DNA of 64,000 nucleotides from Haliclystus octoradiatus. Lineage: Eukaryota; Cnidaria; Staurozoa; Stauromedusae; Haliclystidae. The position numbers and the translations under genes are program-made. Numbering within the stretch: position 1 is the first letter of the stretch; the number at the start of each line of letters is the position of its first letter. Below the pieces are notes generated by a model. It did not search any database. It saw only the letters and a program-made list of their open reading frames with translations, and had not been told where the DNA came from. Positions 3,203 to 50,600 of the stretch are shown here, in pieces. The stretch covers positions 16,207,103-16,271,102 of the forward strand of contig OU744452.1 in the NCBI GenBank assembly GCA_916610825.1, read 5' to 3'.

Positions 3203-3366
3203 TTACATTACTGTGCAAAATTTTGACTTTCGTTTGACCAAACCATTTTGACTGGCGGCAGAGTCATTATTACTATTCAAAAGCTTTTTGTCTCTCGATG
3301 ACGTCGGTTTCTTTCCGTTCTTATTCAAATTTGGGTCGTTTGATAAATCACCATAGGACGTTGGCT
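3203..3366 (-). CDS. PDE: C-terminal tail exon with CaaX prenylation motif
   Basis: The last exon begins by completing a Glu codon and encodes a hydrophilic Asn/Ser/Lys-rich tail, then [10 protein letters not shown] and TAA. The final CTVM fits the CaaX consensus with Met at the last position, which favours farnesylation. The preceding basic cluster would add membrane affinity. Prenylation is known for vertebrate PDE6 catalytic subunits and for an insect PDE6, and not for PDE5 or PDE11. Membrane attachment here is inferred. Confidence 0.9.
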
Positions 3367-6300
3367 CTGAAAAATTAAATTTTAAATACGTAAATTGCAT
3401 TACTAAACACGTGAAAGTTTGGCATCATTTTCGTTTATGACATCGTGCTATTTCGTTAACCTTTCAAATCAGGATTATCAGCCAGCTCTTGCCATTTTCG
3501 TCGATTATTCGAGACACCGTCGTATAGGCCTTTCATGTTTTCATTTATTTGATAGAACAACTGGAGAACAAAAGCATTGATTTTATATTGATTATATAAG
3601 CTCAATAGCGGTATATATACTATGCGCTTATCAGCGGGATACACCATTTAATACCCAAAAGTGCGTATGTTTTGTGAAATTAACAAAACCTAACCTTGTA
3701 AACAGGCATACAAACGAAATCGATGAAACCAACTTGCATTTTCGGTAGGTCCCCTTTCTTATCCCTATCCATCATCGGCTGGAAAATATAAAAAGACAAT
3801 TTTATTTATAGTTCAGTATTACATAATGATTAAAATATTAATTTATCAACTACGCATGATGAGACTTCGTCAACATAAAATGTAAATTACTTGAACAACG
3901 AAGTTGAATTTGAAAGCCAAAAACAGGATTTGAGAGTATAACATTTTTAGGAAAATATAAACTCACTGTAATTCTAATTTAATTTAATGAGAAAACTATG
4001 TCAGTGAAAATGGACATTTATCAGTCTATCAAATACATTTGAATATTTTCAAAAAGAAATTATATGATGTAATATATAGCCATAGGTAGCAAGTGGGCGA
4101 ATGATATTATTTGAACAAGTAGGTAATTTATTTCATACAAACAACCATCTATATAGTTCCACATGGCAAGAGACACACATTGAACTTGCGTTGGATCATT
4201 ATATTATGATTGAACAAGTTTTATCGATAAAGATTTCGCAATGTCCAGAAAGAATATCACTTTTATCTTTAGCTTGCAGCTATATCTTTCAAAACATTTT
4301 ATCATTCTACAGTATATGCTTTCACAAATAACAATCAATATATTTCTTTATGTATTGATAAATGTTGATACGATCGATCATTTTTGCTCGACAATATAAA
4401 TTATAAAGCAAATGTTTGCAAATTGCAATGAAGAATCAACAAAATCTTTTTCAATAATGTTTACAGGGGCTCAGTATAACATCTATCAAATTTAAAGCGA
4501 AAAGTCTATTCTTTTTAACCAAATGATTATTTTTGTAGAAAATTTGCCATTTATATGTTCAATTGTTCATAATCGTTTTACAAGAAACACAGTTTCATAA
4601 CTATCGTGGAATGGAAACTACCCTTAAATAATATTTTGAATAGGAGACACACCCTTGGAAATCTTTGATTATCAGGGCCAATAACAACCAGCTGTTTCGA
4701 TTAAAATCAATTTATATAACGGATGAATTATATATAGTTTCATTATTAGTTCGGTATAGATACAAATATTTCCCATTAGACATAATATATTAAAAAGTGC
4801 TTTGAATCGTTACTAACACAAACACAATATATTTACTTACAATAGGTTCAGCATTGAGATGGTCTCGTTCCATATCCCCTTGTTCAAAAAACTCACTTGC
4901 TACCATTTCGGCAACCTAGAAATGAAGAAGTGTGTAGAACAGTAAATCCCGGATAAGATAATTAATTGCCACTTTTTTAGCATAATATTTTTATAAATTG
5001 GGGTAATTTAGTGCCTAAGCTTCCTCGTTCCTTGGGATTTATATAGGCATTTGAAATACCTTTTCTGTACGATATTGAGGACGACGAGGATCCAAATTGA
5101 GAGACTCTAAATTCAATTCACCGGTGTTAAAAATATTCGATCAACTCCCCCATGTCTAGTTCGAAACATTAATAGATTTTTCGTTTAATATTTATATTTT
5201 TACCGTCAAAACATATTTCTATCTAAGCAACAGCTGTATAATGTATATTGTATTAAAAAATAGAACAATTTTTATATCATTACCCGTTGTTGTACTTTCC
5301 ATGGTTTTGCGATGGCAGAAACATCACACGCTGTCATTAACATTGCCCTAAAATAAAACATGAAAATATAATCCCTGTTGTTAACGATCGTTTTGATAAC
5401 CGTACAACACAGGTAAATTATAGTGTGAGAAATAAAGTAGAAATACAGTCGAGCTTTGTTTTAACATCCCCTCTTTTAATGTCTCACCTTGGGCTCAGCA
5501 CCCCCCGACATCAAACTGATTTCTAATTTATTTCAATTATACGTAGTCATAATGAAACGGTCATACTGAAATCACCCTTGCTTATCACCCCATTTTCCAT
5601 CTCGCCAGGGGGGGGGGATATTGAGTCAGTTCGACTGAAATTGTTAAGGTGCGTTGTACTGGTCTGTATAATAATAATAACTTGTTTAACTTGTTTACCT
5701 TAGCAGACTTTTATTTTCATCTGTTGTCCAATCGGGGTTTTCTGAGTCTGCAACTTTTTGAAAAGCACCTCGTTTCCTATCGTCAACAGATAATATGATT
5801 AATTGATATGCATGTCTATACCTAGATGTTACCAGTGTAGACATTTGAAAGTATAATAAATCAATTTCATGTGAAGGTGTGCAGAGAAGAGACTTTAGAT
5901 CAAACGTACTTCTATGTATTTTATGCCGGGCCTTCAGCTTAGAACAACACTATCGAAATTGATCATACAGTGTTTACATTTATTTAATTATTCAATCCAT
6001 ATGTTTAATTAGCTGAAATTTTCAGTTTTATAAGCGCTATGTTACATTTAAACATTTTTTTTATACATGGCATGTACATTTGATTTAGAGTTATATTATT
6101 CGTATGTTTCTCAAATAGTTTTCTTTTACATAAAATGTGCTTTCAGAATTTTAACGTGTTTGGATTTGATTTGCATTTATTCAATTGATTATAATTTAAT
6201 ACATTTGATTCGATTTACTCCTGTTTACATATTATGAGCTTGAATAACCGTGAGTCAAAAGGTACATAACATTCCCCGACACATGGAATTTGTTTATAAA

Positions 6301-9300
6301 TCCTGCGTATTGTATAAGTTGTAAAGAATGTGAAAAATCAGACGAGTGTAATTAAATATGAACTTAATTAGTGGAAGTAGTCCGCATGCAGAAGAATGCA
6401 AATAGTAGCTTTATAGATTAATCACAGGGAAATAAAGTTGAACCTTTGTTCGCTTTTCAACACAATTTTAAATCAAAACATCTTGACCGACATCTATATT
6501 GAAACAAAATCAATCAGTTTGAATCAAAGGAAATAATCATACAAATCTTTGTACAAACTTCGGTATGAGCTCCATTCTCAATATACTGTAGTTCAAGTTT
6601 CCAAGTTTCATAATAGTCATGATTGTTGTATCGACGATGTCGTAATTTGTATTTGACCGATACTGACATAAATTATCTGTGAAAGAAAATGTTACTGACA
6701 TGAACATAGCATGCTAGATCGAGCGTACGTACTTCATGAATAGACCGATATCGGTTGCGATGATTGCATGTTCGAGCATAGCTATAAATTGTCGATATTT
6801 TGCTGGGCTGAGATTTGCTAGAATGTTATTACCCTGTAAAGAAATGAATGATTTAAGTTTTAATGATTATAAGTTTAATAATTTACACATGAATTGGAAT
6901 ATTAATTGTTATGCAGAATTAATATTTGCATTTTGCAGTAGCTACAATTAAATTTATTTATCGGTTGAAATTTAAAAATTAAACTTTATTGGTTTAAGCA
7001 TTGTGTTTAATTGGTTGTTTTATTTTAATTTGTTACGATATAATTGTCAACGTTCAATCTTGGATTTTATTTATAAAAATAAATTTTTAAACCCAAACGT
7101 AATAGTTTGCGAAAGAAAACTGTTTGTTGTCGTTTGAGCTGCGGGATGTCATTAGAAGTACGGAGAAACACATCGTCTTTTCTCAGCTCATCTTCGTTTG
7201 GTGTTTCAACCATCAATTAAAAACCTACTGGAAATACAATGCCAAATCCGTTGATAAAATCGCATGTTCTAGAACTTCAATGCCCTCACGATATTGATCA
7301 GAACTAAGACCAGCAAGAATATTATTACCCTGGAAATTAATAGTATCAAATAGACAAATCACATTAAATCAATCAATATTCCATTTGGAGAGAATACAAT
7401 CCTAAAAAGCCATTCCGGGGAAATTTACATTAGCGAAATCATTGAGATAAGGCACTCGAGATCATTTGCAATGTTTCCGAATAAAAATCGAAATCGTTAG
7501 GAATATAAATGATCATTCCACGCGTATGAGAAATATTGTAATTTAAGATTCTTAATATAGTTTCCGATATTAAAAAATTGATCGGATCGGAAAGTTCGTA
7601 TCGAACTGGAAAGTGGAAATACTACGTAGTTGAAATCAAGCGACGGTAAAGCATTGTCATCCTTAAATCCGGACAAGAAGAAATCGGAATGCTCGTAGGC
7701 GACCGATCACGACGACTCCGGGCTTCCAAATCGGATAGAGAGGTATCATCAGGACTGGTACACGATGGATTTCCTTTATTGAGAATTTTAGGGGTTCAAT
7801 CGGTGACAAGTATTCTGTAGCCTGCCGATACTTTCTAATCCCAAATGGAAACCGTGACTAGCATTCTACAAATCGATATCATCGAATCGACATTCGACAG
7901 CCGAGATTACTCCCGATGCATCCCGATTCGATATTAAAACCTTACAGAGCAGTTGAGATGCGATAGTATACCTCGCTGTTTAAGATCATGATAGAATGAT
8001 CAAAATGATGATGTTCCATTGTTGATGTACTGTACAGTTTCGAAATTGGTGAATCACTCCTGAAATTTGATGTGAGTAATATAATCATTAATCATACAGT
8101 GAGCTAATGTAATAAATAAATAGAGCATTGCACGGTACAACAACTAAAGACAGCCAGATCAGCAATTAAGCAAATTGATTTGTCCTTGTATTCAGTACGT
8201 CAAGCTTTCATTATATATTGCAGATCCAACGTGCCAACTTTTAATAAGACCACCCGATGAGCGTAATCATGCGAAACTCCGAGAACGGGAGAAAGCGTCT
8301 TATTTATGATTTATTTAAATACAGATCTACCAACCAGCAAGTGGGCATTGTAGTAATTATATTGATGTTTTAGCTTCGATCGATTTGCATTGGAATGAGT
8401 TCCCCTGGTGTTGTTCCCCCATCGAAGGACAACTTCTTCTTTACTCCCAAAGAGTTCCTTGGGAAAACCCCGAGGAAAACAAGGGCCGTTACGGAATAAA
8501 AGTATAAAGGTACCATTGATGCCCTGCAAAACATATCTCCCCATGTCCACAATGTCCGGTAATTATCATTGGAAAATAAAAAACCGTCCAAAGAAGCAAT
8601 GCTATGATATAAAATTGACTTACTTGACTTGAAATGTATTGTTGGTTCCTCTGTGGTCAAGATCATGGCATAAACAACCCACCATCATCACAAGCAATTC
8701 AAGATCACTAAACCATGATTTCATTCGACCAGCCTAAAAAAAAAAAAAAAAATCAATTATCAATTGGTCCATATAAATGAGGCTTACGCACACCGTTTCT
8801 TTTTATATGAATCATACTAAATTTCCGATAAAACTAACTACTGTAGATGTTTACGTCTGGAGCCTAAAAATAACCCTTCTTGTGCCAACAGTGCCATTGG
8901 TGGTAATAAATACGTTGCGGGTTCTGGGGGTTCTTTACTCAGGAAATTAATGGATTTCATTGAATGATAGTCCAACATTCGTAGTATAGTTGTCATAGTT
9001 ACTTCATTTGTACATTTATTAATTTGCACTTACCTCAAATATTGCAAACATTGTTTGAGCAACATTGAAAGCGTGTCGCCAGTTATGATATGTTACAGGT
9101 CGATAATTTTTCTTTACAGATAATAACCAACGACACATCACCTAAGTTGACATTAATACACATATTAGTTGAAGCTATAAATATAGTACTGTGTAGGAGT
9201 TGCAAGAGGTGATATTTGAATGCGCGTCCAATCACGTTCTACGGACGCGTAAACGGTCCAGAATTGTTTCCGATTTATGGAGAAGTGAGCAGCAGTCAAC

Positions 9301-12300
9301 AATTTATTCAAACAGATAGAGGCAATGAATACTGTTTTTATTACAATGATATGGCAATAGTAGAATCGTAACTACCAATCATCGCATCGAACAGTACCTT
9401 TAATCTCAGAGGGGCTTATATAGTAGTTACCGCGTGCAAAATTTTGAATACCATGAGCGATGTTGAGTTTTAGCTTTTCTATATATGATATAGCTAATAG
9501 GAAATAGGATAGGATACAATGCATGACTGTGACCGTTAGCGCTTACCGTTACCATTACCAGGCATATGGATTTTTTCGTTTCACTTTGTCAAATTTGTTT
9601 TTTATATAATAGTTGGACCAATTATAGAGTAAAGTGAATTCTGTATATAGTAAAACATCCACGTATAAGATCTAGATAATTGACCACTATCGACAGGTGA
9701 CAAACAGTGTTAATTCAAAAAATGAACTTTTCATATATTATCGAGGTGGTCACTGTGGACAGGTGGTTGTTACATAAGGTCTGACTGTAATTCATGTATT
9801 AACAACAAAACTTATGAGTGATAGGAAGGGCCGAAGAATAATATTTCAGAATTGGATGTAAATACATAGGCGTAGAAAATTGTTAAGAGACAGCTCTGCT
9901 TGCTACACGGATATACAAGGTGTGCACGTAGTACATTTTCAGTGGATGCATGTTGCGGTACAGAGGTAAAAATCGTTCCACGAAAAAAAAAATGGATTAA
10001 AAATTGTGTGTAGGAATAAGCAATTCCAATTTTGATAACTTTTGATGGTCGATTAAACACAGAAATATTGCCATAAAAACTTGTATGACGACCTACCTTG
10101 CTTGGAATATGAAAAGTATTGAGTAAATCCAAATCAATAAACATACGCATTGATGCGAGGCAAGTTTCTTCTTCAGTTAAGATGATATCGTCAAATTCAA
10201 AAGTTTGAAGTTCCCATTTATCACAATCAGGAATAGCGGATTTCTAGAGGGATTATAGCAATATGATAAAAAAAATCATCAAGATTGGTTCGTAATTGCA
10301 AAAATATATATAGAATTTGAGAAACAGCAACTACAACATACACTCAGGGCATTTGCCTCATCTTCATTAGCACTTGCATGGTAGGAGAGTACCTAAAATA
10401 TATTTACATCAAATAATCAAATATTAAACACTTCCATACAAGAAATATGAAATGAGAGATTAAAGGATTGTCAGATAATTCTGTGCATTATTTCAAACCA
10501 TGATCTTTCACAGAAAACTCATTTTAAACATTTAAGAGGAACCAAAAATTTCACTGTAAGTACTCATACATTGAAAAAAAACATTAAAAAAATTCACATT
10601 TATATACATTTTCAGATCATTTTCAAGATTTATAAATTTATGCAAGAAAATATCAGAACACTGTCGTAAAAACTTGAAAATCATCTAAACATATGGTTTC
10701 AATAGAAACAAATTCGTTACAGGAATACACAATTCATTTTTCAATTCAATGTTATCATTGAAACTTGTGATTAATATTAATAATATAAATACATGATACA
10801 TTGCATAATTGTCTCACTAACCTCCATTGCTAATGTTTGTTTAGCTAACAAACGACATGCATCTTCGTAAGCTTGCGTGTTGTGGATACCAAGACCACAA
10901 AACATTGAAAAAGCCTGATGAAAACAAAACAGGAAATCATACAGGAAAACTCATGCATAAGAATCTATTCTTCAGGTTAATGAAAATGTTTTCTTGGACA
11001 AGAAAACCAACTGATCAAAAGTATCCCTTACAATTGGACAGTGATACTAGTGTAAAGGATAAATCCAATACAATAAATTAGAAAAAATTCTGGCTAAAGA
11101 GCCCACAAGCGCGAAACTCTGAGTCACAATGAAACTTGACTAATCTTTGTTTCATTTATACATAGCTCTACTTAAATGCACTCTCTTGAAAGGCACTCTC
11201 TTAGAATCCCATTTTCATTAGAGACATTAGAGCATGTTGACAATATTAATCCCTGCGAAACAAGTTCATGAATTTTTATAAACGTTCAGGAACTGTGAAG
11301 AGCAGCTCGTAGTTCATTAAGTCTTACAGTTCATGGGAGTTTATGAACTTTGGTGGGCTCATTACAGAATGACTTACAGAATCCGAATTTGGTTCTAAAA
11401 CCATAGCCTTTTCAATAAACAAGACATAGTTAGCAGCGGCCATACTCATAACAGCCCAAATAGCAGATAAATTACTACCAAAGCTCTTTAATTTTGAACA
11501 AAAATCAGTATGACAATACAACACTACTGAACATCAAAACCATGAACAAAAACTGTGAAATTTCATTGCGTTTTCATTGCGTTTTTAAAGCATTTTCACA
11601 TTTGAATATTGTGAAAATTGATGTTTTCATGGTTTTTAAACTTTTTATGGCTTAATAAATTTATCTTTTTCATTTTTTTTTACATTTTCATGGTGTTTTC
11701 ACAACACTTTCATGGCTTCTTCATTGGTTTGGCGTTGGCAGTGCCAGAGTCATTGATATCGATGTATATCGTATATCGATGGCTTTGAGAAGTGCTGGTT
11801 GATCTAGACACCTTCAGTGTGATTGTTACATACCTCAAACATGCTCTCTTCATTTTCAGCAAAAGGATGTCCATTATGTTTATTAATCAGCTGAGCAACA
11901 CCTAAATGGAGAATTATTTAGGAAGTACAGTGAAACTGTGTAAACCTGTATATAACACTTGACAGCCAGCTACGGAATATAGAGAAATTGATCTGTGTAT
12001 GCTGGTAGTCCTTAATTATCAAGGACATTTCATGACATTTTATTAAATTCTGTTTTCAACCCATTTTCAATATTATTTTTGCATCTGGTATCTTTGTACA
12101 TTTACTACAAATCTACCATGCATCAAATGAAAAATAAAAAAGTTATCCTACTTTCAAACTGAACTTGGTGGCTTGTTGCAATAACTATTCTTTTTTTCAT
12201 TTTATGCATGATAGATTTTACAAATAAAAGCAGCAATAAAATGTCATAATATCCCCTTGATCTAGCCACAACCCTAATTAGGTTATCTTACACATCCGCT

Positions 12301-15300
12301 AAGGTTTCATCTAATTGCAGTCTAGGGTGATTTATGAAAGATAAACATCCAAGAAAAACAGCTGCCAATAGAACCTTCACTCTATAGGTTAAGATGAAAG
12401 GAACGAACTTGTATAACAGTTTTCCTGTAACTCTAATGACTGAAAATAAGCGGTCCAACCTCTTCAAAGTTTAGTAAATTTGTTAACAAAATCGTGATTA
12501 TGCGCATGAACAATGTTAGGAGTACAAGTGTAGCTGCTACCATATACTGGTTTCAGTGGTCTGTATATATAGCTGTTCGTGAACTCCCTAAAATTTCGTA
12601 GGAGTCTAATCCTGTATAAAACAACCTATTCATATTTTTCCTGAATAACTTAGTAAACAGAAAGCAATCAAATATTTTGGAGAAGTTTTGAAACCTCGTT
12701 TATTTATGGGATTGTTGTATCTGATGTCTGAATAGAAGACTACATACCAATAACTTTATGAACATTGTTCTTAATAGGGACACAAAGCATGCATTTGGCT
12801 TTTGTTCCTGCTTGACAATCAACTGCAGCCTGTAAATTTTTAAGATAATAGAATTAAAACATATATCGTTAAATACTTTTAAGGGGGAAAAAAGTGCTTT
12901 AGTGGGCGCTAACACGCTTAGAATCTTGTGCCTGTTTACACTGTGGTCGTCATTCATATTGTTTCTGTGTCTAAAACTTCAAATTTGAAGTCATGATTGA
13001 CATTGATCATAGAAAGCCTATTTCAAAATAAAGCTGGCAGCAGCAGCCGGCCAATGTTGTCCCCATAGATAGTGCTATGTAGCAGTTCATGAAGATTTAT
13101 TGACACCTTTTTCCGTCAATAGTTTATGAACAGTTCGTAAAACATTCATCAAAAAATTAAAGAAAAATATAACATTTTAACATTCATGAACTGCTAAGAA
13201 TCATGTGTTTCATGAATAACAAATCTCTAAAAATTTATGAAAAGTTTATCAAAATGATCATGAAAATTATGCTTATTTTTAAAAATCATGAACTGCTTAT
13301 AAAGTATAATGAGCAACTTTATAAGTTTGTGAAAAAGGTTCATGTTCATGAAATTTAAGACGCTTTGGTGAACAATAAATGACCAAAATTTTATGAAACT
13401 TGAAGCATGTTTAATGTTTATGAGCTACTAGCTATTCAAGCTATTCAAGCAAGACTGTTTAATAAGCCCTTTGTTATAAAAAGTTCATGAAAAATTGATA
13501 AAAAAACAGGTTAATTAAAGTTCATGAACTGCTCATTAATGGGTTACGAACATTTAATGTGCTATTTTTAATAAATGTTCATGGAAAGGTTGATAAAAAC
13601 AGGCTATTTACAGTTCATGAACTGCTCATTAATGGGGTACGAACATGTAATGTGCTATTTTTAATAAATGTTCATGAAAAGGTTTATGAAAACAGACTAT
13701 TTAAAGTTCATGAACTGCTCAAAAATTGGTTACGAACATTTGATGTGCTATTTTTAATAAATGTTCATGAAAAGGTTGATAAAAACAGACTATTTACAGT
13801 TGATGAACTGCTCATTAATGGGATACGAACATTTAATGTGCTATTTTTAATAAATGTTCATGAAAAGGTTGATAAAAACAGGCTATTTACAGTTGATGAA
13901 CTGCTCATTAATGGGATACGAACATTTAATGTGCTATTTTTAATAAATGTTCATGAAAAGGTTGATAAAAACAGGCTATTTAAAGTTCATGAACTGCTCA
14001 AAAATTGATTATGAACATTTAATGTGCTATTTTTTATAGAAAGTTCATGAAAAAGTTGATAAAAACAGGCTATTTAAAGTTCATGAACTGCTCATTAATG
14101 GGTTATGAACATTTAAAGTGGGAATAAACCCCCAGATTATCTTTACATATGTAGTAGAACCCAACGTGAAAAAAACAATGGCGTAATTTTTTTTTCGGTC
14201 TGGAAATTATTTCTTGGTGAAAATATAAAGAAAAATATATCCAAATAATAAATCAAATAAAAAAAGGAAAAAATGTTACTGCAGACTGATGGGATTGAGC
14301 TTCAAACCCCATGCGCCTGATGCAGACGCTCCACCACTAGACCATACCAAGATAAAATAAATGAAGTGATTTCCACTACTTATAATACAGGTGTGAGTTG
14401 TAAATGACGTGCGAAATTGACTCATCTTAAGCTGATGTCGCAGCAGAATTAAAAAAATTTAATAAACCAAATAAAACCATGACGACTGGCTTAGCAGTTT
14501 GATGTAAAAAATAACTTCAGAAAACAATACAAACAATAAATATATAATACTGTCTTGTCTAAGCCCCCAAACAAATGATGAATTGTCGGTTTAAAAGTTC
14601 TAATGGTCAAAACACAACAACAATTATCTTCGAAGTTTCACCTCTCAAATAGTGATGTTACAGAACGATTAAAACCTTTCATTAACCATTTCAAATGACG
14701 AGAAGAAGAAAACAATCATGTGTTCTACCAATGAAGAGATAATCACGATGTAAACTAATCCAAGAGCATAAGAAAACATTTCATTTAATAATGCAATTGT
14801 AATCTCGCCAAGTCGACCATCATGGCGGGCAATGGAAAAATCCAGCAAAAAATTTGGAATTATCACACAGCTTGCCCATTGTATTTTTAACAATAAAATG
14901 GTGTTTCTTGCGCAATCGTTTTTTGTTCGGCCTTTGTTAACACGCAAAGCAGTATGTTGAACGTTATTGCAAAAGAACAAAAGATTTAGTCAAAAATGAA
15001 GTGAAATGAAATGAGAAAATCAACGTTTCTACCATGACATCATAGACTCAAGGTCACTTACGTAACCATGAGTCAAAAACAGGTTAATTAAAGTTCATGA
15101 ACTGCTCATTAATGGGTTACGAACATTTAATGTGCTATTTTAAATAAATGTTCATGAAAAGGTTGATGAAAACAGGCTATTTAAAGTTCACGAACTGCTC
15201 ATAAATTGGTTACAAACATTTAACGTGCCCTTACAATATAATGGCATTACATACAATATACTGACTATTGCAAGTGACCTACCTTATTTGTATCTGTGTT

Positions 15301-18300: not shown

Positions 18301-21300
18301 TCAAGGAAACCCCTGCGAAAAACAGATCAGGAGTTCATGAACATTTCATGGAAGGTATAATTTTATTTAGGTATCACAACTTACCTGCTCCTCCGATGAT
18401 TGATCCACAATATAAACTGAGCATCTCTCACATTTAAGTAATTCTTGCGCCTGTGTAATGATTCGTCTGACAACTGTATCTAAGCATGCAGTTTCTTCAA
18501 AAATATTTCGAGCTAGATTTAACATCACCTGGATAAAAAATATTAATTGTTGCATTTTTCAATCGATCAACTGTGAATTTACGATGAAATAAAAGTTATT
18601 TTGGCATTTAGATTTACCTGGTTTCTTTTGTATTCTGATACAGAGATTTCAAATAACTTTGCATTTGTTAATCCAATACCACAAAATGTAAGATACTTTG
18701 CAAATATCTGAAAATTAAATTAAATACGCTCCTTGCATGGTGTGGCAGACATATATGACATTTAATAATTCATTACCAAATGGAGGGGTAGTATTCCCCA
18801 GGAAAAATTAAAAATCAAAATAATGTGAGTGATATAAATATTAAAAATCACTCAATCAAATGCTTACATCTTCATCTTTCTTATTGAACGCATGGTTCCC
18901 TGCCTTTTTATTGATGACCTGAGCAACACCAATGACCTAGACCATACAGAAATGTTATATTATGATTAAAAAGCAGACTCTTTTTGATTGACATAGACTG
19001 TTCAAAATTTCCTATCATATCATGAATGTTGATTAATAGCAATTGAGGCCCTCTTGAGAATGATTCACCTGTTTATAATAACCTCCATCAATTGGATCAG
19101 AGGCAACTAAATGACTGTGAATCCATTACATCAATACCCTCAGTTGTGTTTATCAGCAACCTTTTGATTTTGTTGAAAACTTACTAATACCTACTAATTT
19201 TTATTATAATTGTTGCTGTGACTGTTTGACCGGCAGTCGCAGCCATTATAAATAGCAACGCATGCAAATGATGATTCAAACTATTAAGATCTGCACACTA
19301 GTCAGACACACTTCCGATGCGCTATGCGGTCGAAAGATGATGAAACAGTTCACAAATTCAACCTCGACCGGTTGGTTATCACGTGATCAGACCCTAACAC
19401 TAACCTAGCCTCATTCCATCACGGCCCTCATTTCCGCGCGGCGCTCCAGTGAGGGCCTAATAAAACTAAAGGTTAAAAAGTGTGATCTATCAGTTTGCAG
19501 CAGTGTTTTGCTTACCTCTCCATCGTAACTTTTGATTGGCAAACATAAGATACTGTGAGTGGTGTAGCCAGTATGTTTGTCAATTTCAGAATTGAATCTT
19601 GGATCCTACAATAAAAGTAAACAATATAAAGAAATTAAAATAATATATCAAAATAATGAAGACAATAAAAACGTTTATGTAGGTTGTTATGATTAACACA
19701 GTCAATCGTGTTATCACCTCATATAATGGCAACCTGCATATAGTGGTCACTATTGGCGCATGTCTAAGCTATTACTTTCTATTGAGTCAACCCTTAATAT
19801 AAAGACTACCTACCTGCATACAATGGTCAATTAATCTACCTCTCATAGCTGTTTGTAAGTGCAAAATTCAGATCCAGTGAATGTTACAAATTTGACAAAG
19901 TCACTCCCAATTTGACTTAAAATAGAACAACTTTCTCTAAAACAAGTTAGATTTTGCTTTTGTTATGTTTTCATCAGGGGCGGATCAGTTTTAAAATAGG
20001 GTGAGTCTCGAAACTGAAATCGGACAATAAAGGGGCGAAGCCCCGTCCATCTAGGGGGGTGCGGGGGCATGCCCCCCCGGAATTTTTTTTGTAATTTCAA
20101 GCTCTTAGGAGCTCTCTAAAAGCAGTTTGGTCTCAACTTTACTATATTGAAGCATTACTAAAACACTGGTCATTCAAGACAAAACACATTTCAATTTTTT
20201 GATTGATGATTTTCGATTTCGTATATTTTTCAAACATTTTTTTACAAGGTCAAGATTAAGATTATACAAGGCCTTGATTTAATACAGTCTTCAGAGTATA
20301 TTGATAATGTAGCTAAGCTATTACAGTCTAAATTTTTTACATGTATAATTGGTATACCTGAAATTACAAAAAGAAAACTATATTGACGTGAACCATGTGT
20401 GAGAATGAGACTGAGAGACTCAACATTGACATCATGTGAGCTTAGATATATGTATCGAATATTAACCTCCGTTATTCAGCATAATCAAGTCCTTTCTCGA
20501 AATCTCGGACCTTTAACATATAGAAGAATATGTGTATTAAAAAAAGACAAACAGCACGATATTTCAAATCGCAAGGCTTTGACGGTCTGCCTTCCCCTAT
20601 TTGCACATTATCATGTACATGTTAATTAAACATATAAACCACCATGCTCAGTCTAAGGCTGTATGAATAAACAAACACAAACTTTACATAGCCATTCTAA
20701 TCCGTGTCAGAACCTTTAACAATAAATTAACAACATAACCAAACAAAATAATACGTACCTTAAAGCAGTGCCTAGCTCCTTCTTGGATTCTTAGTAATTA
20801 GCAGAAATGTAAACAGTAAATGTAAATGTAAATATCTTTCAGCATGTAGATTTCCGAATTTACGATAAAAACATTATAAAATAAGATTTTAGCAAAGAAA
20901 ATAGCGAAAAAGAAGACAACTTCGCCATAAGACGTTGCTGACTGTTGTTGATATTGTCCAAATTACCAGCCTTTCATATGTGCAGGGTATATCCAGCCAA
21001 ATTTAACTTCGTAGCAAAATGTGTGTGCCACAAGCAACATGAAGATTTGTAGTTAAAGCTCCAGACTTTCTCAGACTTGTACAACAAGAAATCGATAAGG
21101 CGCAGAAGTCTCTGACTAAATCGAGGCATGGTGGGTAAGTCTCAAAAATCACGGTCAAAACTCTGCTAACTATTGCTCTGCCTACGTCAGACAACGGTCT
21201 GCGAGGCCATTTCACAAGTCTCGGGGTAAGTCCTTTTGAAGCTCCTCTACGAGCCGCTCCAATCACACGCAAGAAAAATTTCGGCAGACCAATGAAAACA

Positions 21301-23312
21301 TCAGAAAAATATTCAAAATTTGCAAAAATGTAATCGAGGCTTTAGGGTAAGTCCTTTTGTGTATATGAAACCTCAATACCAAACAAACCAATGAACAACA
21401 AGTAAAATGTGGTGTCTGGACTGCGTGCAGCTAGAAAAGTCGAATAAAGTCACGAAACATTTCAATCCAAAATTTAGTAAATAAAATGAATTTGCTAGAG
21501 AAAAAGGGTAAGTCTTGGGACTTTTTAGACTTACCCTCTATCCGCGCCTGGTTTTCATATCTCTATTTTCTTATGGTCTGAAATATTGGGATATTTACTG
21601 AGTACGTACTTTATGGATGGCCCCTAAGTTAGTAGTAGTATAGACGTCACATTATAGGAATGTGCCGTCCCTCTTATGCCTTACATATTAGCTACACAAA
21701 GAACGCCACAAAACACGGTCAGAAATAGCTGACAAAGAAACTTTTAAATAACACAATTCACGATACAAAACATTATGAAAAGATTAGTTAAGCCCCTAAG
21801 TTAGGCCTACTCTAATCAGGATTGACAATTTAATAGCCCTGTTGTCATGTGCGCACTTCAATATTATTAATTCACCAAGCGCAGGTACATAATCCATATC
21901 TCCAGCACAGCTTGATGCAAGCTGCAAGCACTGAACCCATTCCATACCAACCCTTGCTATTCCTGATATTGAGGTTACACTGTATGATGGTACATCGGAC
22001 CTGTCTGCAGACCATACAAGATATAATAGCCTCAATTTGATTTTCAATCGCATTTCCCAGCAAAATATTTTGATGGATGAATAATATTTTCGCACATGGT
22101 TGTTGAAAAATTGTAACTTAATTGTCAACTTAATGAGAAGCAAGCCAATATCACTTGAGACGTATGTCTAAAAACAGTCATATTTTAATAAGATGTTAAT
22201 GAACGTAAACAGATTTTACCAGATTCTGTTATACAACGTTTAAAAATAGACAAAACTTGAGTTTGTGTTCACGACCAAAAACAAGAACAAAACACATTCA
22301 ATAATTATATTTTAATTGATAATAGACAAGGGGCGGATACGGAGACAGTAGTTAACAAAAGGTCTGGTTGTTCAAACTCAATGTCCCTTGGTAACGCACG
22401 TAAACAGCACTTTATTTTGATTGAAGTTGTAATGAAAATTGATGTAAATGTTGACTACGACTTGGAGATTCTCATAAACAATCAACGCTGTGATTTCGTT
22501 TGAGTTCAGAGTTGAAGTTACATGTTTTCAGGACTTAGATATATCTGATAGTTCAAACCGCAAAACAGGTGAAATAAAATAATGTACACAACTCAAAATA
22601 GATCAAACTCGACTATTCTAACCTCATAAGCGTCGTGTATGTTGATCATTTCTCCTGTAGCAGCCGTATGCCCAGCAATCCCAACTCCAACTGGTAAAAT
22701 AATTTCTGACCCTTCAGGTCTTATTGAATCAGAAACAGTTGAATCTTGAGTCACATCAAATAATCGAGAAACAAGATATCGGCGATCTTTGCTACCATGA
22801 ACAAGAAATAACGAGCATCTATCACCATTTGTTAGAATACTAACATTGACCAGGATTTTATGAGATAAAGCGTTGATGTCTAATTCGTTTGAAATGTCCC
22901 GAATGAGTGCCATAAGCAAGTCCCCCTCGTCAAGTTTTTTAAGATCTTTCGGGCTAACTGGGCTACTCTTTTTTGGTGTAATAATTGTTTCATCGTCCTC
23001 TGGTGCAGTAGAATTCGAAGTAACATCATCTCCTTCATTTTTCTCTCCAAATAATTGCTTCAATTTTGTAGCTGAGCTACCAAGTGATGTTCTGCGAAGA
23101 GGACGTAAAACAGAATTGGAAGAACTAGTAGAAATCTTTTTTACAGTACTTATCTCTGGAGCTGAAAGTTTGTGTGATCTCCTTGACATCCATAGCTCAA
23201 TAAGTCTTGATGATGCTTTTCGTAAAAAGTAATCTTCACATAGGTCAATGTTGTCATCCAAAAGTTTGTCGAACTCGGCAGGATCTGACCACGAGTTATT
23301 CTTCGTTGTCAT
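3203..23312 (-). CDS. PDE5/6/11-group cyclic nucleotide phosphodiesterase with C-terminal CaaX box
   Basis: Hydrolyses cGMP and/or cAMP. Exons, 5' to 3' on the minus strand: 22623-23312, 19516-19605, 18868-18936, 18618-18707, 18385-18528, 16583-16644, 16432-16492, 15283-15333, 12748-12829, 11834-11901, 10822-10914, 10342-10392, 10097-10243, 9034-9141, 8624-8733, 7972-8059, then either 7229-7329 or 6733-6833, then 5699-5776, 5284-5347, 4841-4915, 3695-3778, 3461-3560, 3203-3366. All junctions are phase-consistent and give 889 residues, close to the PDE6 family length. Order: N-terminal helix, GAF-A (about 133-315), GAF-B (about 315-500), catalytic domain (about 545-840), Lys-rich tail ending CTVM. 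GAF-B (LLKCERCSV) looks most PDE11-like; the region PMMDRDK...[10 protein letters not shown] and the CaaX look PDE6-like. Assignment within the group needs a tree. Confidence 0.95.
3461..10392 (-). CDS. PDE: HD-type catalytic domain exons
   Basis: The catalytic domain opens with VLSYHAS and continues through FRMF-like [10 protein letters not shown] to the metal-site motifs. Visible ligands are TYHNWRH (His585, His589), CHDLDHRG (His625, Asp626, Asp628, His629), [21 protein letters not shown] (Asp736) and QVGFIDFVC, whose Gln789 should be the invariant purine-clamping glutamine. No key residue is missing, so the enzyme should be active. The segment GNNILA..LY between HHHFD and KRGAFQK is encoded by one of two alternative exons. 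The last domain exon ends [11 protein letters not shown], as in PDE6/11. Confidence 0.93.
6733..6833 (-). CDS. PDE alternative catalytic exon, version b
   Basis: A second 101-bp exon about 400 bp downstream of version a, with acceptor TTTACAG and donor AA|GTACGT. It encodes [14 protein letters not shown] and ends [10 protein letters not shown]. By my alignment it is identical to version a at 19 of 33 residues, with the same length, the same start codon triplets and the same exit phase. Its core TDIGL replaces TDLAL. Inclusion of both copies (202 bases) or neither shifts the frame, so the pair should be mutually exclusive. Confidence 0.87.
7229..7329 (-). CDS. PDE alternative catalytic exon, version a
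   Basis: A 101-bp exon with acceptor TTTCCAG and donor CA|GTAGGT. It encodes 33 residues starting [14 protein letters not shown] and ending [10 protein letters not shown], plus two bases of the next codon. It matches the family consensus (in PDE5, ILATDLALYIK) better than version b does. It joins in frame to the upstream exon ending HSIMILNSE and to the downstream exon starting KRGAFQK. In PDE5 the equivalent Leu of TDLAL lines the substrate/inhibitor pocket (recalled from structure literature). Confidence 0.9.
7400..7971. other. PDE intron between exon 7972-8059 and the alternative exon pair
   Basis: Between about 7560 and 7945 the base composition is less AT-rich and richer in CG than the rest of the intron, with many GATCGG/CCGAT words. 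This suggests a foreign repeat, but I could not find convincing ends or a coding frame. Confidence 0.35.
10822..18528 (-). CDS. PDE: GAF-B exons
   Basis: Seven exons. The order of motifs is [73 protein letters not shown] and [17 protein letters not shown]. The NKFDE-type signature here ends in Glu-Glu rather than Asp-Glu (F-A-E-N-E-E). The introns are large and hold most of the repeats described separately: the foldback near 17 kb, the 93-bp array near 13.8 kb and the inverted-repeat segment near 16.1 kb. Confidence 0.9.
11378..11485 (-). other. Possible in-frame cassette exon of PDE (weak)
   Basis: An open stretch of 36 codons with a phase-0 acceptor (TTAAAG) and a good donor (TCT|GTAAGT) lies between the exons at 11834-11901 and 10822-10914. 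If used, it would insert 36 residues without shifting the frame. Its middle ([22 protein letters not shown]) aligns without gaps, but weakly, to the next exon's [15 protein letters not shown], hinting at a diverged duplicate. The joined protein is already complete without it, the acceptor has a poor pyrimidine tract, and it may be chance. Confidence 0.25.
11530..11735 (-). repeat. Dispersed ATGAAAAC-rich repeat, copy 1
   Basis: About 200 bp of repeated TTTTCATGG/ACATTTTCATGGTG words. It aligns along its whole length with the segment at 24633-24830 in reverse orientation: shared blocks include CATTTTCATGGTGTTTTC, CACAACACTTTCAT and TTCACATTT.AATATTGTGAA. No coding frame. Probably a non-autonomous mobile element of unknown class. 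Confidence 0.6.
13085..14118 (+). repeat. 93-bp tandem array and related GTTCATGAACTG repeats in a PDE intron
   Basis: Seven units begin with GTTCATGAACTGCTC or close variants at 13520, 13613, 13706, 13799, 13892, 13985 and 14079, a period of 93 bp with one 1-bp slip. From 13085 to 13520 there are irregular relatives of the same unit. Because 93 is a multiple of three, the frame stays open from 13559 to 14008 and would encode a 31-residue repeat. I see no ordinary gene structure around it. A partial copy recurs at 15076-15232. Confidence 0.85.
14280..14350 (-). repeat. tRNA-like SINE head (minus strand)
   Basis: Read on the minus strand, TGGTCTAGTGGTGGAGCGTC resembles a pol III A box and GGGTTTGAAGCTCAATCC a degraded B box. 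The acceptor stem does not close and the loop is divergent, so this is a tRNA-derived repeat or tRNA pseudogene, not a working tRNA gene. It lies in a PDE intron inside the gap between the 93-bp array and its partial copy. Confidence 0.45.
15076..15232 (+). repeat. Isolated partial copy of the 93-bp repeat
   Basis: From AACAGGTTAATTAAAG onwards the sequence repeats the start of the array at 13506, continues for about one and a half units, then stops 50 bp before the PDE exon at 15283. About 960 bp of unrelated DNA separates it from the end of the array, so an insertion or segmental duplication split the block. Confidence 0.7.
15960..16245. repeat. Inverted-repeat element in a PDE intron
   Basis: Two imperfect arms of about 75 bp (roughly 15970-16045 and 16155-16240) are reverse complements. 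They share the blocks CCCTATTCTTTCGTGAATGA and CTGTCTGTAAC. Just to the left, TTTTTTGCAGGGG at 15885-15897 mirrors CCCCTGCGAAAAAC at 18312-18325, suggesting ends of a wider TTCATGAACTG-rich element family. Confidence 0.6.
16835..16902. repeat. Fragment of the CAGTNAAACCTG TA-flanked MITE family
   Basis: Contains GGTGACCACTATAGACAGGT and ends AACAGGTTTGACTG followed by TA, the same right end as the complete copy at 30766-30877. Other partial members lie near 9610-9792, 11935-12010, 19690-19855, 48480-48545 and 48740-48830. Confidence 0.6.
16955..17575. repeat. Long foldback element in a PDE intron
   Basis: About 620 bp forming a large imperfect hairpin. The left arm (from about 16955) has CAACTCAAACTTG, AATAAAAAGGTCATAATA, ATCTTCAAACATTGAATA and TTTTTATTGATCTCAGTTA. 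The right arm carries the reverse complements in mirrored order up to about 17575. The loop is near 17240-17275. Small frames on both strands are by-products of the symmetry. No transposase frame is visible; it is probably a non-autonomous DNA element. Confidence 0.75.
18618..23312 (-). CDS. PDE: N-terminal region and GAF-A exons
   Basis: Four exons. The first (230 codons, starting at the ATG at 23312 in a good AAAATG context) has the FDKLLDD...EDYFLRKA helix typical of PDE11/PDE6 starts, then a Ser-rich stretch (residues 48-125). GAF-A runs from RDISNELDI through [24 protein letters not shown] and NIHDAYE. The next exons supply DPRFN..IDK.TGY and LCLPI, then GVAQVINKK. The GAF signature N-K-x(n)-F-x3-D-E is intact (N269, K270, F277, D281, E282), so cyclic-nucleotide binding or structural integrity is plausible. 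The fourth exon carries [19 protein letters not shown]. Confidence 0.92.
19975..21550. mobile_element. Non-autonomous hAT-type DNA transposon, 1.58 kb
   Basis: The left end is CAGGGGCGGATCAG and the right end, read inward, is CAGGCGCGGATAGAGG. It is flanked on both sides by the 8-bp direct repeat GTTTTCAT (19967-19974 and 21551-21558), the hallmark of hAT insertion. GGGTAAGTC/GGGTGAGTC words near both ends look like subterminal transposase-binding repeats. A G/C-rich inverted segment with runs of G and C occupies 20030-20085. I see no transposase frame, so it would need a partner in trans. It sits in the first PDE intron. Confidence 0.85.
22320..22350. repeat. Possible solo hAT end
   Basis: CAAGGGGCGGATACGGAG resembles the left terminus of the hAT element at 19975. 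No matching right end or target duplication was found, so it may be a fragment or chance. Confidence 0.25.
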
Positions 23313-38020: not shown

Positions 38021-39633
38021 AAATATATATATATATATATATAGGTGATGATATAGACATGTGCGTCACATTTGATAACATGTCAATATTTGTTTTGTTT
38101 TTTTAAAAAGTTTCTCAATAACATTCTATTTATAATGGGAGCTGGATTCAATTAAAACGATATATGTTTTCGGATGCTTTTATATTATAAACCAGCTTCA
38201 ACATCAGATAATATTAAATGTGATAATAAGGGAATTATGCCACTCACAAAGACGAAATTTAATTAGTATTATGGGAACTTTCAAATATGTATATATAATT
38301 TGAGATCTGTTTATATATACAGTAAAGTTTTTGTAATTAACAATAATCATGAGCAGTAATTGTAAAAACGTTTTTTTTTTAATAGAAAGTGATAATCAGT
38401 TTTCTTTTTGATGATCATCTAAAAATTATGTTTGTTCGAAACATCTTTTATTCTATTAAACCTAAATCTTGCTAATTCAGATGTATAAAGAAAGAAAAAA
38501 ACAGGCCATGGTGTGTTTGATAACAATTCTGATAACAATTTATGTAAAAAAAATATGGTAATATATACATTAGTATATATACCAATATTAAAAAAACATA
38601 ATATGAATAAAATATCAATCATTTTTTGTGAAATTATTATAAAATTTGATAACAAGTTTTGGGGTCAATCTGACGTATATATAATATAAATATGTAGTAA
38701 AACACATTTATGCATGGATTGCATGTGCTATAGCATATTTTTTTTATCATTTTCGGGACGTAGGTTTGTGGCTAGACAGATGTCTCTATAGATATATAGA
38801 TGTGGAAATTATGTTGATGGAAGTACCATAGATATATAATGTATTTTCAAATTTAAGGAAGCATTTTGAAAAATGATGATATTTAAAAAACAATGTTAGA
38901 CCGTATATATACTGTGATAAGCAAAAAGATTAGACCTTTACAAGCTGTTTTCCTGTTATCATGTTATAGGCCAATTTAGCTAAACTATTTTGCTACAAAT
39001 CTCATAAAATAGTTACCAGTTCTCTTACTTATAAACGATTCCATTAAAAAGACAAACAAAATATACATGATTTGTTATGAGTCTTCTTGATCACAATGCT
39101 TTTAAAGAAAGGATTTTAGACAATGATTAAATAAATAGAATTTAGATTATACCAGTAACAAAATTTAAACCATATGACGTCTTGGTTTTAGCATTTCTTT
39201 ATAGTGAGTTGTTCATTTATTATTTATATATTTCACTGTGGTTTATAACTTATTATGAAGTGTTAAAAAAAGACATTTACCATATGTTATTCCTTGATGG
39301 ACACACAACACTATAATTATGAAGAGCAAAAAACACTGATATCATTCAATAATACAAAATAGAAGTAGACATTATTAAATGTTGACGTATGTATAGCCAC
39401 GTCTAAATCTGGATGAAAGGTATTTCTCTTCTACTTTATATCTTAACAAGTAATTTTTATGATCTTTTGGGTGTTTTATTCAAAAGCTGGTAGATTCATG
39501 TCTTGTCAAAGTTGAAGCTATATAATAATAAAGACTTTTATTTATTATTACTATTCTTCATTTTCAAAAAAGTTTAAAAAAAACTTGATCAAACGCTTCA
39601 TTGGATCTAAAATAAGAATATCATATTGGTATC

Positions 39634-40842
39634 ATGTCCAATTGTACATTTTTATCCCTTATTAATTATAATACGACATTAAAATTATGTCCGAATAAAT
39701 CAGCAAATGTATTTTCACCACGTGATAAAGATACACAAGCAAATGAATGGATGTCTATGATAATACTTGGTTTATTAACAGTTATATCCAATAGTTTCAT
39801 ATGCTTAGCATTTTTAACAAGTCAAAGTATGAGAACAAGAGCTGCCAACATATTAGTATTTAGCCAGGCGTGTATTGATATTATCAATGCAGTCATTTTT
39901 ATCCCAGCAAATTCCATTGAAAAATATCAAAATCAACAACTTGTTACACCTTATGTAATATGCTATGTTTTATTTGTATCTATATTCAATTTATTTGCTT
40001 TGGCAATTGATCGCTCGTTGGCATTATTAAAACCATTATATCATCATTTACATATTGGAAGAGGGCAAATGATGAAATGGTTGATTGTCATTTGGCTTGC
40101 ACCGTTATTCCTTACATTAATACCTTTAACATGGCATTTTGAACCAATGGATGTACAAAGCTTAGCTATTCGTGTTTATCTAGCATCACTTTGGTTGTTT
40201 ATGTTCGTTATTTGTGTTGTCATGGGATGCATGTACTTGAAAATTTATTTTGTGGCACGTAAAATGATTCGACAACGTCATGTAACGCTGGCAGGAAATC
40301 AACATCGTAAGCCAACGCGTAAATCTATTGCTAGAAAAGAACTTAAAATAGCTCATCTATTCGCATTATTACTGCTTTTCTTTTTTTTGGCTTACTTTCC
40401 TATATTATATATCAACTTTGCCAATCTTATAAATCGAAGGGATTTAGTGCCTGTACAATTAGTTGATATATCATTATATAGCTTAATTTCAAATTCAATC
40501 GTCAATCCATTACTATGTATTTGGTTTAAAAAAGATTACCAAACAGCGATTGTGAAAATGTTTCATCGCAAAGCAGAAAATCCAAGACCTACTCTTGGTG
40601 AAAGTATACGCTCAAGCGTTAGTCGCGTCGATGATTACTCGCCACGTGCGTCTCATTTTGAACGCACAAATGGAACAGCAAAATCTATTCGCATTTATGA
40701 TTTACCTGCTCTTATCGAAGGCGAATCTGCAGAAACACGATTTTCTGATGATAGAGCTACAAGCCCAAATAATTCAGATATAATTCTGCTGGAAAAAGGT
40801 GAAGCTAGTCTATATCATAATGAAGATATAAAAGAATGTTAA
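39634..40842 (+). CDS. Intronless class A (rhodopsin-like) GPCR, orphan
   Basis: 402 residues, ATG at 39634. Predicted segments: TM1 about 41-62, TM2 72-92, TM3 105-127, TM4 148-167, TM5 181-205, TM6 238-261, TM7 272-297, then a 105-residue Ser-rich tail. Class A marks are visible: Asn53 in TM1, Asp82 in TM2 (SQACIDII), DRS at 126-128 in place of DRY, and NPLLC at 291-295 in place of NPxxY. N-terminal NCT, NTT and NKS are glycosylation sites. TM6 has FFLAYFP, lacking the CWxP tryptophan, and the second extracellular loop has no Cys to pair with Cys110. Ligand unknown; the sequence is too divergent for me to place in an amine, adenosine or peptide group. Confidence 0.88.
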   Translation: MSNCTFLSLINYNTTLKLCPNKSANVFSPRDKDTQANEWMSMIILGLLTVISNSFICLAFLTSQSMRTRAANILVFSQACIDIINAVIFIPANSIEKYQNQQLVTPYVICYVLFVSIFNLFALAIDRSLALLKPLYHHLHIGRGQMMKWLIVIWLAPLFLTLIPLTWHFEPMDVQSLAIRVYLASLWLFMFVICVVMGCMYLKIYFVARKMIRQRHVTLAGNQHRKPTRKSIARKELKIAHLFALLLLFFFLAYFPILYINFANLINRRDLVPVQLVDISLYSLISNSIVNPLLCIWFKKDYQTAIVKMFHRKAENPRPTLGESIRSSVSRVDDYSPRASHFERTNGTAKSIRIYDLPALIEGESAETRFSDDRATSPNNSDIILLEKGEASLYHNEDIKEC

Positions 40843-47685: not shown

Positions 47686-50600
47686 CTATTTTTTTCCTTT
47701 TTTCATGAAGTTTTTGAAACTTTTTTGTTTTTTCACTTTTTTGGGTGATTTTCCAGAAGGTAATTCATCAGCATTTGATCCATTTTCACTTCCAATCCCT
47801 GTGGCAGTCGATGGAGTTGCCATGGTATCAACAGGTGAATTGGGTACACCTTCACCTTCAACGACTACAAAATCGTCACCGTTCGACGCTCCGTTAACAA
47901 AAACGTGACTATCATCTGTCACGACTTCTTTACCATCAATAACTTCAACTGTTTTATGTGAAACCAATTTGATAACGTTTGTCTTTGTCGTTGATTGACC
48001 ATCTTGCGTTGACGTTTTTTCAGTTGTTTCCGTTACAACTGTTGTTGTTTCTGGTGCTTTCTTTGGTGTCTCCGTGACTACATCTGTTACACGTGTACTT
48101 GGTGCAATACGTTCTTCTTGATCGACTACATCTGATGGTTCAGCGTCTTTAATACCATTTTGGACAGGTGCTTCATGCTTGACTTTTGCTTCCATTTTTG
48201 GAGGCTGAGTGTGTAAAACAAAACAACACTCAAAATGTGACCTTTTCTAAATCATCCTGTCTAACGTCTAACTATCCGGTCTATCCCCACTTTAAAATCA
48301 CTGTATCTTCATAATTTATAGCTTTCCAAATATAATACTGTACATTACAAGCATAATCTTTATTCAAAAGTTAAAATATATATTGAATCAATATGCATTA
48401 TAATTTTGTTACGACGTAATTAGATTCTCAACAAATGTTGTAAACTTTGTAACAACCTTGGTGGTGTTTGTTTGAAAACCAGCCCTTGCTGGAGTGGCCA
48501 CTATAGACAGGTGACTGTTGCATACAGGGTCAATCCAACAGATTATTACACTTACTCTAGATTATAAACTTGTAACCTTTACAAGACTGGATTAAATAGA
48601 ATATTGTCATAAATGAGGCAATTTAACAACCATCATAATCCTAATCACTTTTCAGAAAACCTGATAAATATTTTCCCTCAAGGAATCGACTGATAATGGT
48701 CTACGGTTGAATAATTTCCAAAGATTTATTTTCCATATTCTATTGAATCACCTATATATAAAGGTCACCTGTCTATAGTGGTCAATTTATCTACTTTTCG
48801 TAGCTAGCTGTAGGTTTCACTGCAACATTATATAAGAACATTTAGAGGAATTCGATTGTTCAAAATTGAAATTAAAATATTGAACTCCAAGTAAATAAGC
48901 ATTTTGGATTTTCAATAAAGTTTGATGATGATGATGAGATTGTGTAAAAGCACTTTGTTTAATTTAAGTTTACATTAACAAAAATCTCATAAGTCAAACA
49001 GATTATGTAAAAAAAACTCTCCAAAATATATCTCATGACACAAATAGTTAGAGTACTTACCGGTACTTCCTTTTCTTTTTTATATTGCGTTGCCATAACA
49101 GGACTGTTTAACCATTTTATACGGTTCCTGTATGTGTTGGCACGACTAACTGATGCTGACCGATGAATGGGACTACCACGCTCAATTTCATATAGTAAAT
49201 CAAATGGTGTTTTAAGTGATTGAGTTGTTAACGATGTTGACGTTGGAGGGATTTGACTTTCTGGGATCTTCTTAGTATTACCCTCGCGAATGAAGACGTC
49301 AGGAACGCGATATATATATCCAGTACAATAACCCTGTAAACAAAGTTGAAATTGAATAGATAAAAAGGTGAAGATAAACATACCAGCTGATTATACACTG
49401 AATTTCACACAATGCGTGATCATCAGGCCATTTCCAGGCGTTTAATATCGAACTACAAATAAGATATCCATGTTGCTGGGTTTAATGTGGGTCAAGTACA
49501 ACGTCCGACCATAGGTTCAGCCTTCTGGAATCCTAGAGGCATTTCAACATATTCTTCTGATTTGTTTTGTTGAAGTTTGACCAATAAATCATGAAATTAT
49601 CAATTTTCTTCTTAACTTTTTCTAGCCATCTGGAATCCTAGAGGCATTTCAACATATTCTTCTGATTTGTTTTGTTGAAGTTTGACCAATAAATCATGAA
49701 TTTATCAATTTTCTTCTGAACTTTTTCTAGCCTTCTGGAATCCTAGAGGAATTTCAACATATTCTTCTGATTTGTTTTGTTGACGATTGACCAATAAAAC
49801 ATAAAATTATCAATTTCCGTCTGAATTTGCGCTAGTTTTCTGGAATCTACGATTCCAGGATTTCTACCGTTATTGGACCATGGCCAAGTTGGATTGGGGA
49901 GATCTCTCACAAGCAATAGCAAGTTAATGACATAAACCCGCAAGGACAGCAAACTGAAACAATACATGTTTTTCGATACAAAGAGAACAAAACGAAAATG
50001 AAACAGCAAGCAGCCATATAAAAACATAGACCACAAACACAGTGATTCTAATGATACCAATGTCCTATATTTTGATTGAGAAAATGTAGATACAGTAAAG
50101 ATATAATGTAAGCTGAAATGGGATAATTACCATGGCATCCATTTTACGCATCATTGCTTCCCATTCCATTTGCATAGTTGTCATGGAAGTCCTCTGTCCC
50201 ATCTTCACCTTTTGGTTTTGTGATGAATCCTTGGCTGTTTCAACCATCTCTTCAGGTAGAGTAATAATGTTATCCAAACCAGCTGGCATCATTTTCACCT
50301 AATAGGTTTGAAATACTTGAATTATTTGAGTCGACCTGACTCATAAAAATCAAAACAAAAATTTTGTACTTTGATTACTTTGTCAAGTTTTTTTCTTCTC
50401 GATAAATGGATAAGTATTTTTCGAGGAATAGGCGTTTGAAAAAGTGACATTTACAAATCATAGGATAGACATTATGACGTCACTTAACTTTGAATCTCCG
50501 TTTTGCAAGATCTGTAGCTGTCACTTATTCAAATATCTAATTTCTTAAAAACTCAAAACTAGGGCCTATTTATCTATTTGCCATTCAACAAAGACTGATT

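What the first reader, a model, noticed from the sequence alone, without database searches (positions are those of the whole stretch)
6733..7329. Mutually exclusive exons inside a phosphodiesterase catalytic domain
Two homologous exons, each 101 bp, stand in tandem (7229-7329 and 6733-6833). They start with the same triplets (GGTAATAA.ATTCT.GC), share about 19 of 33 residues, enter at phase 0 and leave at phase 2. Using both or neither would shift the reading frame; using exactly one keeps it. They encode the helix with TDLALYF or TDIGLFM, next to the substrate pocket in known PDE5 structures. The gene may therefore make two enzymes with different nucleotide preference or inhibitor sensitivity. 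I know of no such exon choice in vertebrate PDE5, PDE6 or PDE11.
Basis: partly seen in the sequence, partly recalled or inferred. Interest (0 to 1): 0.85.

Follow-up and report, generated by a model that had tools for sequence, protein, structure and literature searches.

The report
Swappable active-site exon in animal phosphodiesterase
An animal gene for a cyclic-nucleotide-degrading enzyme (the family targeted by sildenafil) carries two ancient alternative versions of the exon that lines its active site, so one gene probably makes two enzyme forms by choosing one version at a time.

Summary
A PDE5/6-type gene on the minus strand (GAF domains, PDEase_I, CaaX-like end CTVM) has two homologous 101-bp exons in tandem: A 7329-7229 and B 6833-6733. 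Both have AG/GT borders, phase 0 in, phase 2 out. Using one keeps the frame; using both or neither gives an early stop. They share 19 of 33 residues, but third codon positions agree at 10 of 33; dS is saturated, dN 0.32, and 0 of 20,000 neutral simulations kept 19 residues. Both isoforms fit PDEase_I equally (281.1 and 279.6 bits). So this is an old, selected, mutually exclusive pair; exclusivity is inferred, as no transcripts were available.

New point: of 11 exon columns invariant in PDE5A, 6A, 6B, 6C and 10A, B departs only at L725I, A726G and Y728F (PDE5 numbering); A departs only at A722S. Positions 725 and 726 line an inhibitor cleft in PDE5A (PMC12907935, passage); cAMP-specific PDE7A has Ile at 725. 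Changed nucleotide or inhibitor preference is plausible, untested. My paper searches found no such exon choice in a PDE. The closest analogue is the coq-2 exon switch.

The parts
7229..7329 (-). Exon A, 101 bp, phase 0 to 2: [33 protein letters not shown](Q); the canonical copy
   Evidence: AG/GT borders and frame; 17 of 34 residues as in PDE5A
6733..6833 (-). Exon B, 101 bp, phase 0 to 2: [33 protein letters not shown](K); departs from the family at PDE5 positions 725, 726 and 728
   Evidence: AG/GT borders and frame; 14 of 34 residues as in PDE5A; 85-residue stretch with B matches PDE5 at E 6e-18
7972..8059 (-). Constitutive upstream exon ([29 protein letters not shown]), ends at phase 0
5699..5776 (-). 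Constitutive downstream exon ([25 protein letters not shown]), entered at phase 2
6834..7228 (-). 395-nt intron between A and B, 26.6% GC; longest AG-free stretch before its acceptor (106 nt) of 15 acceptors measured
5777..6732 (-). 956-nt intron after B; GCATG 18 nt into the intron and TGCATG 342 nt into it (Rbfox-type motif, name recalled)
   Evidence: not tested against chance
3204..12838 (-). End of GAF-B, catalytic domain and C-terminus: exons 12838(approx.)-12748, 11901-11834, 10914-10822, 10392-10342, 10243-10097, 9141-9034, 8733-8624, 8059-7972, A or B, 5776-5699, 5347-5284, 4915-4841, 3778-3695, 3560-3461, 3366-3204, ending [10 protein letters not shown]
   Evidence: spliced model of 14 exons open with either A or B; PDEase_I 281.1 or 279.6 bits; exon 12838-12748
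18385..23312 (-). N-terminal part: first coding exon 23312-22623 and further GAF exons near 19605-19516, 18936-18868, 18704-18606 and 18525-18385; GAF-B middle exons between 18385 and 12838 not modelled
   Evidence: tblastn with a PDE5A GAF query typed from recall; donors checked; GAF in Pfam 21.9 bits, just under its cut-off of 22.4

Best explanation
Exons A and B are a tandem-duplicated, mutually exclusive pair inside the catalytic domain of a PDE5/6-type cyclic nucleotide phosphodiesterase. Each mature mRNA carries exactly one of them, because both or neither shifts the frame into an early stop (and so, by inference, nonsense-mediated decay). A gives the canonical pocket helix (TDLALYFQ). 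B gives the same helix with Ile, Gly and Phe where PDE5, PDE6 and PDE10 have Leu, Ala and Tyr (725, 726 and 728 of PDE5A). The cell therefore chooses between two versions of the pocket wall on an otherwise identical enzyme. I infer that this changes catalytic rate, nucleotide preference or inhibitor and regulator fit rather than destroying activity. Shown: anatomy, homology, frame logic, constraint, position. Inferred: exclusive splicing in cells, regulation, biochemical effect.
For: Equal length, same phases, AG/GT borders, reading frames. A-B homology far above background. dS saturated (pS 0.89), dN 0.32, third positions 10/33, 0 of 20,000 neutral simulations. PDEase_I score 281.1 with A and 279.6 with B; four neutrally changed copies of A (4 of the 9 generated, those with 11-12 residues kept) score 247.4-261.7. 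Only the A/B pair is duplicated: of 19 query peptides of this gene, the other 17 have no second hit with E below 0.05. B departs at 3 of 11 family-invariant columns, all within four residues at 725-728, and keeps the other 8; A departs at 1 of 11. Residues 725 and 726 line a cleft of PDE5A (PMC12907935); the matching Leu770 of PDE2A forms its hydrophobic pocket (PMC6696243 and PMC13095499). Exon pairs with these features are rarely anything else: 90 of 16,180 non-exclusive fly X exons shared them (PMC3228551). Donors of both lack a final exonic G; B's has the weakest predicted U1 pairing of 19 donors (-1.9 kcal/mol), A's is tied fifth (-4.8).
Against: No RNA evidence. No relative genome carrying the pair could be searched: none held for the window, no relatives in viral contigs or genome contigs. 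No significant RNA pairing (shuffles as good in 5 of 40, 6 of 40 and 1 of 25). Weak donors could also mean weak or little use of B. The changes at 725, 726 and 728 are conservative in kind, A itself departs at 722, and PDE2A has His, not Tyr, at 728, so that site is not universal.
Confidence: 0.9

Rival explanations
1. B (or A) is a relic copy that is no longer spliced.
For: B's donor has the weakest predicted U1 pairing of 19; no transcript data.
Against: Both copies are open with intact AG/GT; the differences sit in third positions; 0 of 20,000 neutral simulations matched; B fits PDEase_I as well as A.
Confidence: 0.05
2. The exons are used together, or one as a poison exon that switches the gene off through an early stop.
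For: Double use or skipping gives a stop, so a regulatory off-switch is possible as a by-product.
Against: A poison exon need not keep PDE-like residues; both copies do.
Confidence: 0.04
3. Exclusive splicing is real but neutral in function: B is simply a drifted, interchangeable helix.
Against: B's departures from invariant columns fall only at pocket residues (3 of 3 within 725-728); saturation at silent sites implies long retention of both.
Confidence: 0.25

Closest known systems
coq-2 exons 6a/6e in helminths, annelids and molluscs (PMC7434440; abstract and passages seen)
   Same: Two mutually exclusive exons of exactly equal length (134 nt there, 101 here), not a multiple of three; swap of helices at the enzyme core; the alternative exon changes residues strictly conserved in the family close to the substrate (Phe204 and Ala243 there; Leu725, Ala726 and Tyr728 here).
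   Different: Different enzyme; there splicing, conservation and function are shown, here they are inferred from DNA alone.
PDE5A (solved structures, e.g. 1udt, 9lss)
   Same: Best sequence match (455.6 bits); two GAF domains and PDEase_I.
   Different: CaaX-like end CTVM in the window gene; no such exon pair in PDE5 came up in my paper searches.
PDE6 catalytic subunits (6mzb chains A and B, 9cxg)
   Same: Close match (376.0 bits for the alpha subunit); PIPMMDR and VGFIDFVC stretches; CaaX-like C-terminus as in prenylated PDE6 (PMC13095499 passage).
   Different: Lower score than PDE5A; inhibitory subunit reported absent from invertebrates (PMC4906994 passages).
Splice variants of other PDEs (PDE4 N-terminal variants; PMC2929239 abstract start and PMC12346295 passages)
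   Same: Alternative splicing diversifies PDEs.
   Different: Those reported alter the N-terminus through alternative starts, not the pocket helix.

Membership tests
Mutually exclusive exon cluster (criteria of PMC3228551, passages) | Similar length | tested here: met
   101 and 101 bp
Mutually exclusive exon cluster (criteria of PMC3228551, passages) | Compatible splice sites and same reading frame | tested here: met
   AG/GT, phase 0 in and 2 out for both
Mutually exclusive exon cluster (criteria of PMC3228551, passages) | Sequence homology | tested here: met
   19 of 33 residues, E 8e-10
Mutually exclusive exon cluster (criteria of PMC3228551, passages) | Transcripts with exactly one exon | not testable with these tools
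   no RNA data
Exclusivity by frame shift and decay (PMC5740500, passages) | Joint use shifts the frame | tested here: met
   stop soon after the A/B junction; also on skipping both
Exclusivity by competing RNA pairings | Intron pairings stronger than shuffles and conserved in relatives | tested here: inconclusive
   5/40, 6/40 and 1/25 shuffles as good; no relatives to test conservation
Exclusivity by splice-site incompatibility (U2/U12) | Unlike intron classes | tested here: not met
   GT-AG borders at both exons and their neighbours
Exclusivity by too short an intron | Intron between the exons too short for splicing (threshold of some tens of nt, recalled) | tested here: not met
   395 nt; a distant branch point is not excluded, the AG-free zone before B is 106 nt
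PDE5/6/11 group | PDEase_I catalytic domain | tested here: met
   281.1 and 279.6 bits, cut-off 24.8
PDE5/6/11 group | Two GAF domains | tested here: met
   GAF-A and GAF-B stretches align to PDE5A; Pfam GAF on the first exon alone 21.9, just under the cut-off 22.4
PDE6 | Prenylation signal at the C-terminus | tested here: inconclusive
   CTVM motif read from sequence; modification itself not testable
PDE6 | Inhibitory gamma subunit, G-protein activation | not testable with these tools
   one window only

The most novel reading that the evidence does not exclude
A single PDE5/6-type gene switches the chemistry of its active site by splicing: isoform A is a canonical cGMP enzyme, isoform B, with the Leu725-Ala726-Tyr728 wall replaced by Ile-Gly-Phe, has a different cGMP/cAMP preference or is insensitive to PDE5-type inhibitors (or to an endogenous regulator that fills that cleft), and the choice is made by tissue or stage.
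Probability: 0.35. Interest if true: 0.8.

Novelty: new variant of a known kind. Interest (0 to 1): 0.58.

Why it matters
If true, one animal gene provides a natural matched pair of PDE isoforms that differ only in the pocket helix. That would let the role of residues 725, 726 and 728 in nucleotide choice and inhibitor binding be measured directly, in a family of major drug targets. It would also be a second case, after coq-2, where exclusive exons retune an enzyme's active site.

Tried and rejected
Competing RNA pairings among the three introns: best duplexes were no better than many dinucleotide shuffles. The same GC-richer patch of the A-B intron (about 7196-7145) appears in the top pairings with both flanking introns, which is what a docking site would do, but a single GC-rich patch in an AT-rich intron explains it. 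Rfam (0 matches) and tRNA (0) scans gave nothing. Other duplicated exons: 19 query peptides of this gene, no further pair (one search printed only part of the list). Relatives: one scan each of viral contigs and genome contigs, none confirmed. Structure prediction was not attempted, because spliced proteins are not letter-for-letter products of the window. Species could not be named. Assembly artefact or haplotype duplication rejected: 41 of 101 bases differ.

Printing slips: one search misplaced three N-terminal donors (19513, 18868 as typed, 12743) and misplaced three (19511, 18866, 12742); one search replaces both.

Full report
Observation. The finding lies on the minus strand of an animal genome window (no whole genome held). 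Exon A (7329-7229) and exon B (6833-6733) are each 101 bp, follow AG, precede GT, enter at phase 0 and leave with two bases completed by the G of the exon at 5776.

Gene. I built a 14-exon spliced model from 11901 to the stop at 3204; it is open with A and with B (443 residues each). It scores best with PDE5A among solved chains (455.6 bits; 155 distinct sequences matched, 60 shown), then with PDE6 alpha (376.0). PDEase_I is found at 281.1 bits with A and 279.6 with B. Upstream exons align to PDE5A GAF-A and GAF-B, the first coding exon starting at an ATG at 23312. The middle of GAF-B was not modelled. The protein ends [10 protein letters not shown], a CaaX-like end of the kind that is prenylated in PDE6 (PMC13095499, passage).

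Frame logic. Both exons together stop soon after the junction (...FQVITF*); neither stops in the next exon (...RLDNR*). Only a single choice makes enzyme.

Selection. 60 of 101 bases agree; by codon position 22/33, 27/33 and 10/33. pS is 0.89 (dS saturated) and dN 0.32; of 20,000 neutral simulations with 41 changes 0 kept 19 residues and 3,472 avoided stops. Four of nine generated neutral versions, those keeping 11 or 12 residues, score 247.4 to 261.7 against PDEase_I, against 279.6 for B; these controls keep fewer residues than B does, so the comparison shows the effect of unconstrained drift. Upstream flanks agree at 23 of 60 and downstream at 14 of 60; random intron 60-mers average 16.9. 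Of 19 query peptides from this gene only A and B find each other; the other 17 have no second hit under E 0.05.

Position. By alignment exon residues match PDE5A 697-730. Of 34 columns, 11 are invariant in PDE5A, PDE6A, PDE6B, PDE6C (9cxg) and PDE10A; B departs at 725 (Leu to Ile), 726 (Ala to Gly) and 728 (Tyr to Phe), A at 722 (Ala to Ser). Outside this panel PDE2A keeps Leu-Ala at 725-726 but has His at 728; PDE4D has Met-Ser; PDE7A, cAMP-specific, has Ile-Ser. A passage of PMC12907935 names Ala726 and Leu725 as the upper face of a hydrophobic cleft in PDE5A; passages of PMC6696243 and PMC13095499 name the corresponding Leu770 of PDE2A as part of its inhibitor-induced hydrophobic pocket (the correspondence 725 to 770 rests on the TDL motif and recall). 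A is nearer PDE5A (17 of 34) than B (14 of 34).

How it is chosen. Joint use and skipping are removed by the frame. Splice sites are all GT-AG and the intron between is 395 nt, so neither class incompatibility nor a too-short intron applies. Both donors lack the usual last exonic G; B's predicted U1 pairing is the weakest of 19 donors, A's tied fifth weakest, which fits exons that need a regulator. The AG-free stretch before B, 106 nt, is the longest of 15 and that before A, 70 nt, the third longest. GCATG lies 18 nt, and TGCATG 342 nt, into the intron after B, a possible Rbfox site (recalled, not tested against chance). RNA pairings were not significant.

What is known. Searches for exclusive or duplicated exons with phosphodiesterase terms listed no paper on such a pair in a PDE; listings only, capped at 20, in an open-licence library. 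PMC5740500 (human), PMC3228551 (fly X) and PMC7954323 hold no 'phosphodiesterase' or 'PDE' in their main texts (supplements not searched). The best analogue is coq-2 (PMC7434440, abstract and passages). PMC4906994 (passages) places one PDE6-family gene in Ciona and none in amphioxus; the species of this window is unknown.

Verdict. A real, old, constrained exon pair, very probably mutually exclusive; the effect on the enzyme is a good hypothesis, not a result.

Noticed in passing
814-2374, + strand: Three-zinc-finger protein gene, EGR/Krox-like by eye (C2H2 zinc fingers in Pfam; the name is recalled), downstream of and facing the PDE gene.
   Followed up: partly
39616-40839, + strand: Single-exon rhodopsin-type 7TM receptor (7tm_1, 72.5 bits).
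   Followed up: partly
about 47689-59762, - strand: Adducin-like gene: Aldolase_II/adducin domain at 58891-58478 (60.5 bits); ends in KKSFKNFMKKGKK (seen).
   Followed up: partly
13502-14005, + strand: Open frame made of a tandemly repeated unit ([31 protein letters not shown]) within an intron of the PDE gene.
   Followed up: no
55640-56164, + strand: Stretch resembling a reverse transcriptase by eye (GSVLGQLLFILFINDI); Pfam gave no match.
   Followed up: no
7196-7145, - strand: GC-richer patch in the AT-rich intron between A and B that takes part in the best predicted pairings with both flanking introns; not significant.
   Followed up: partly
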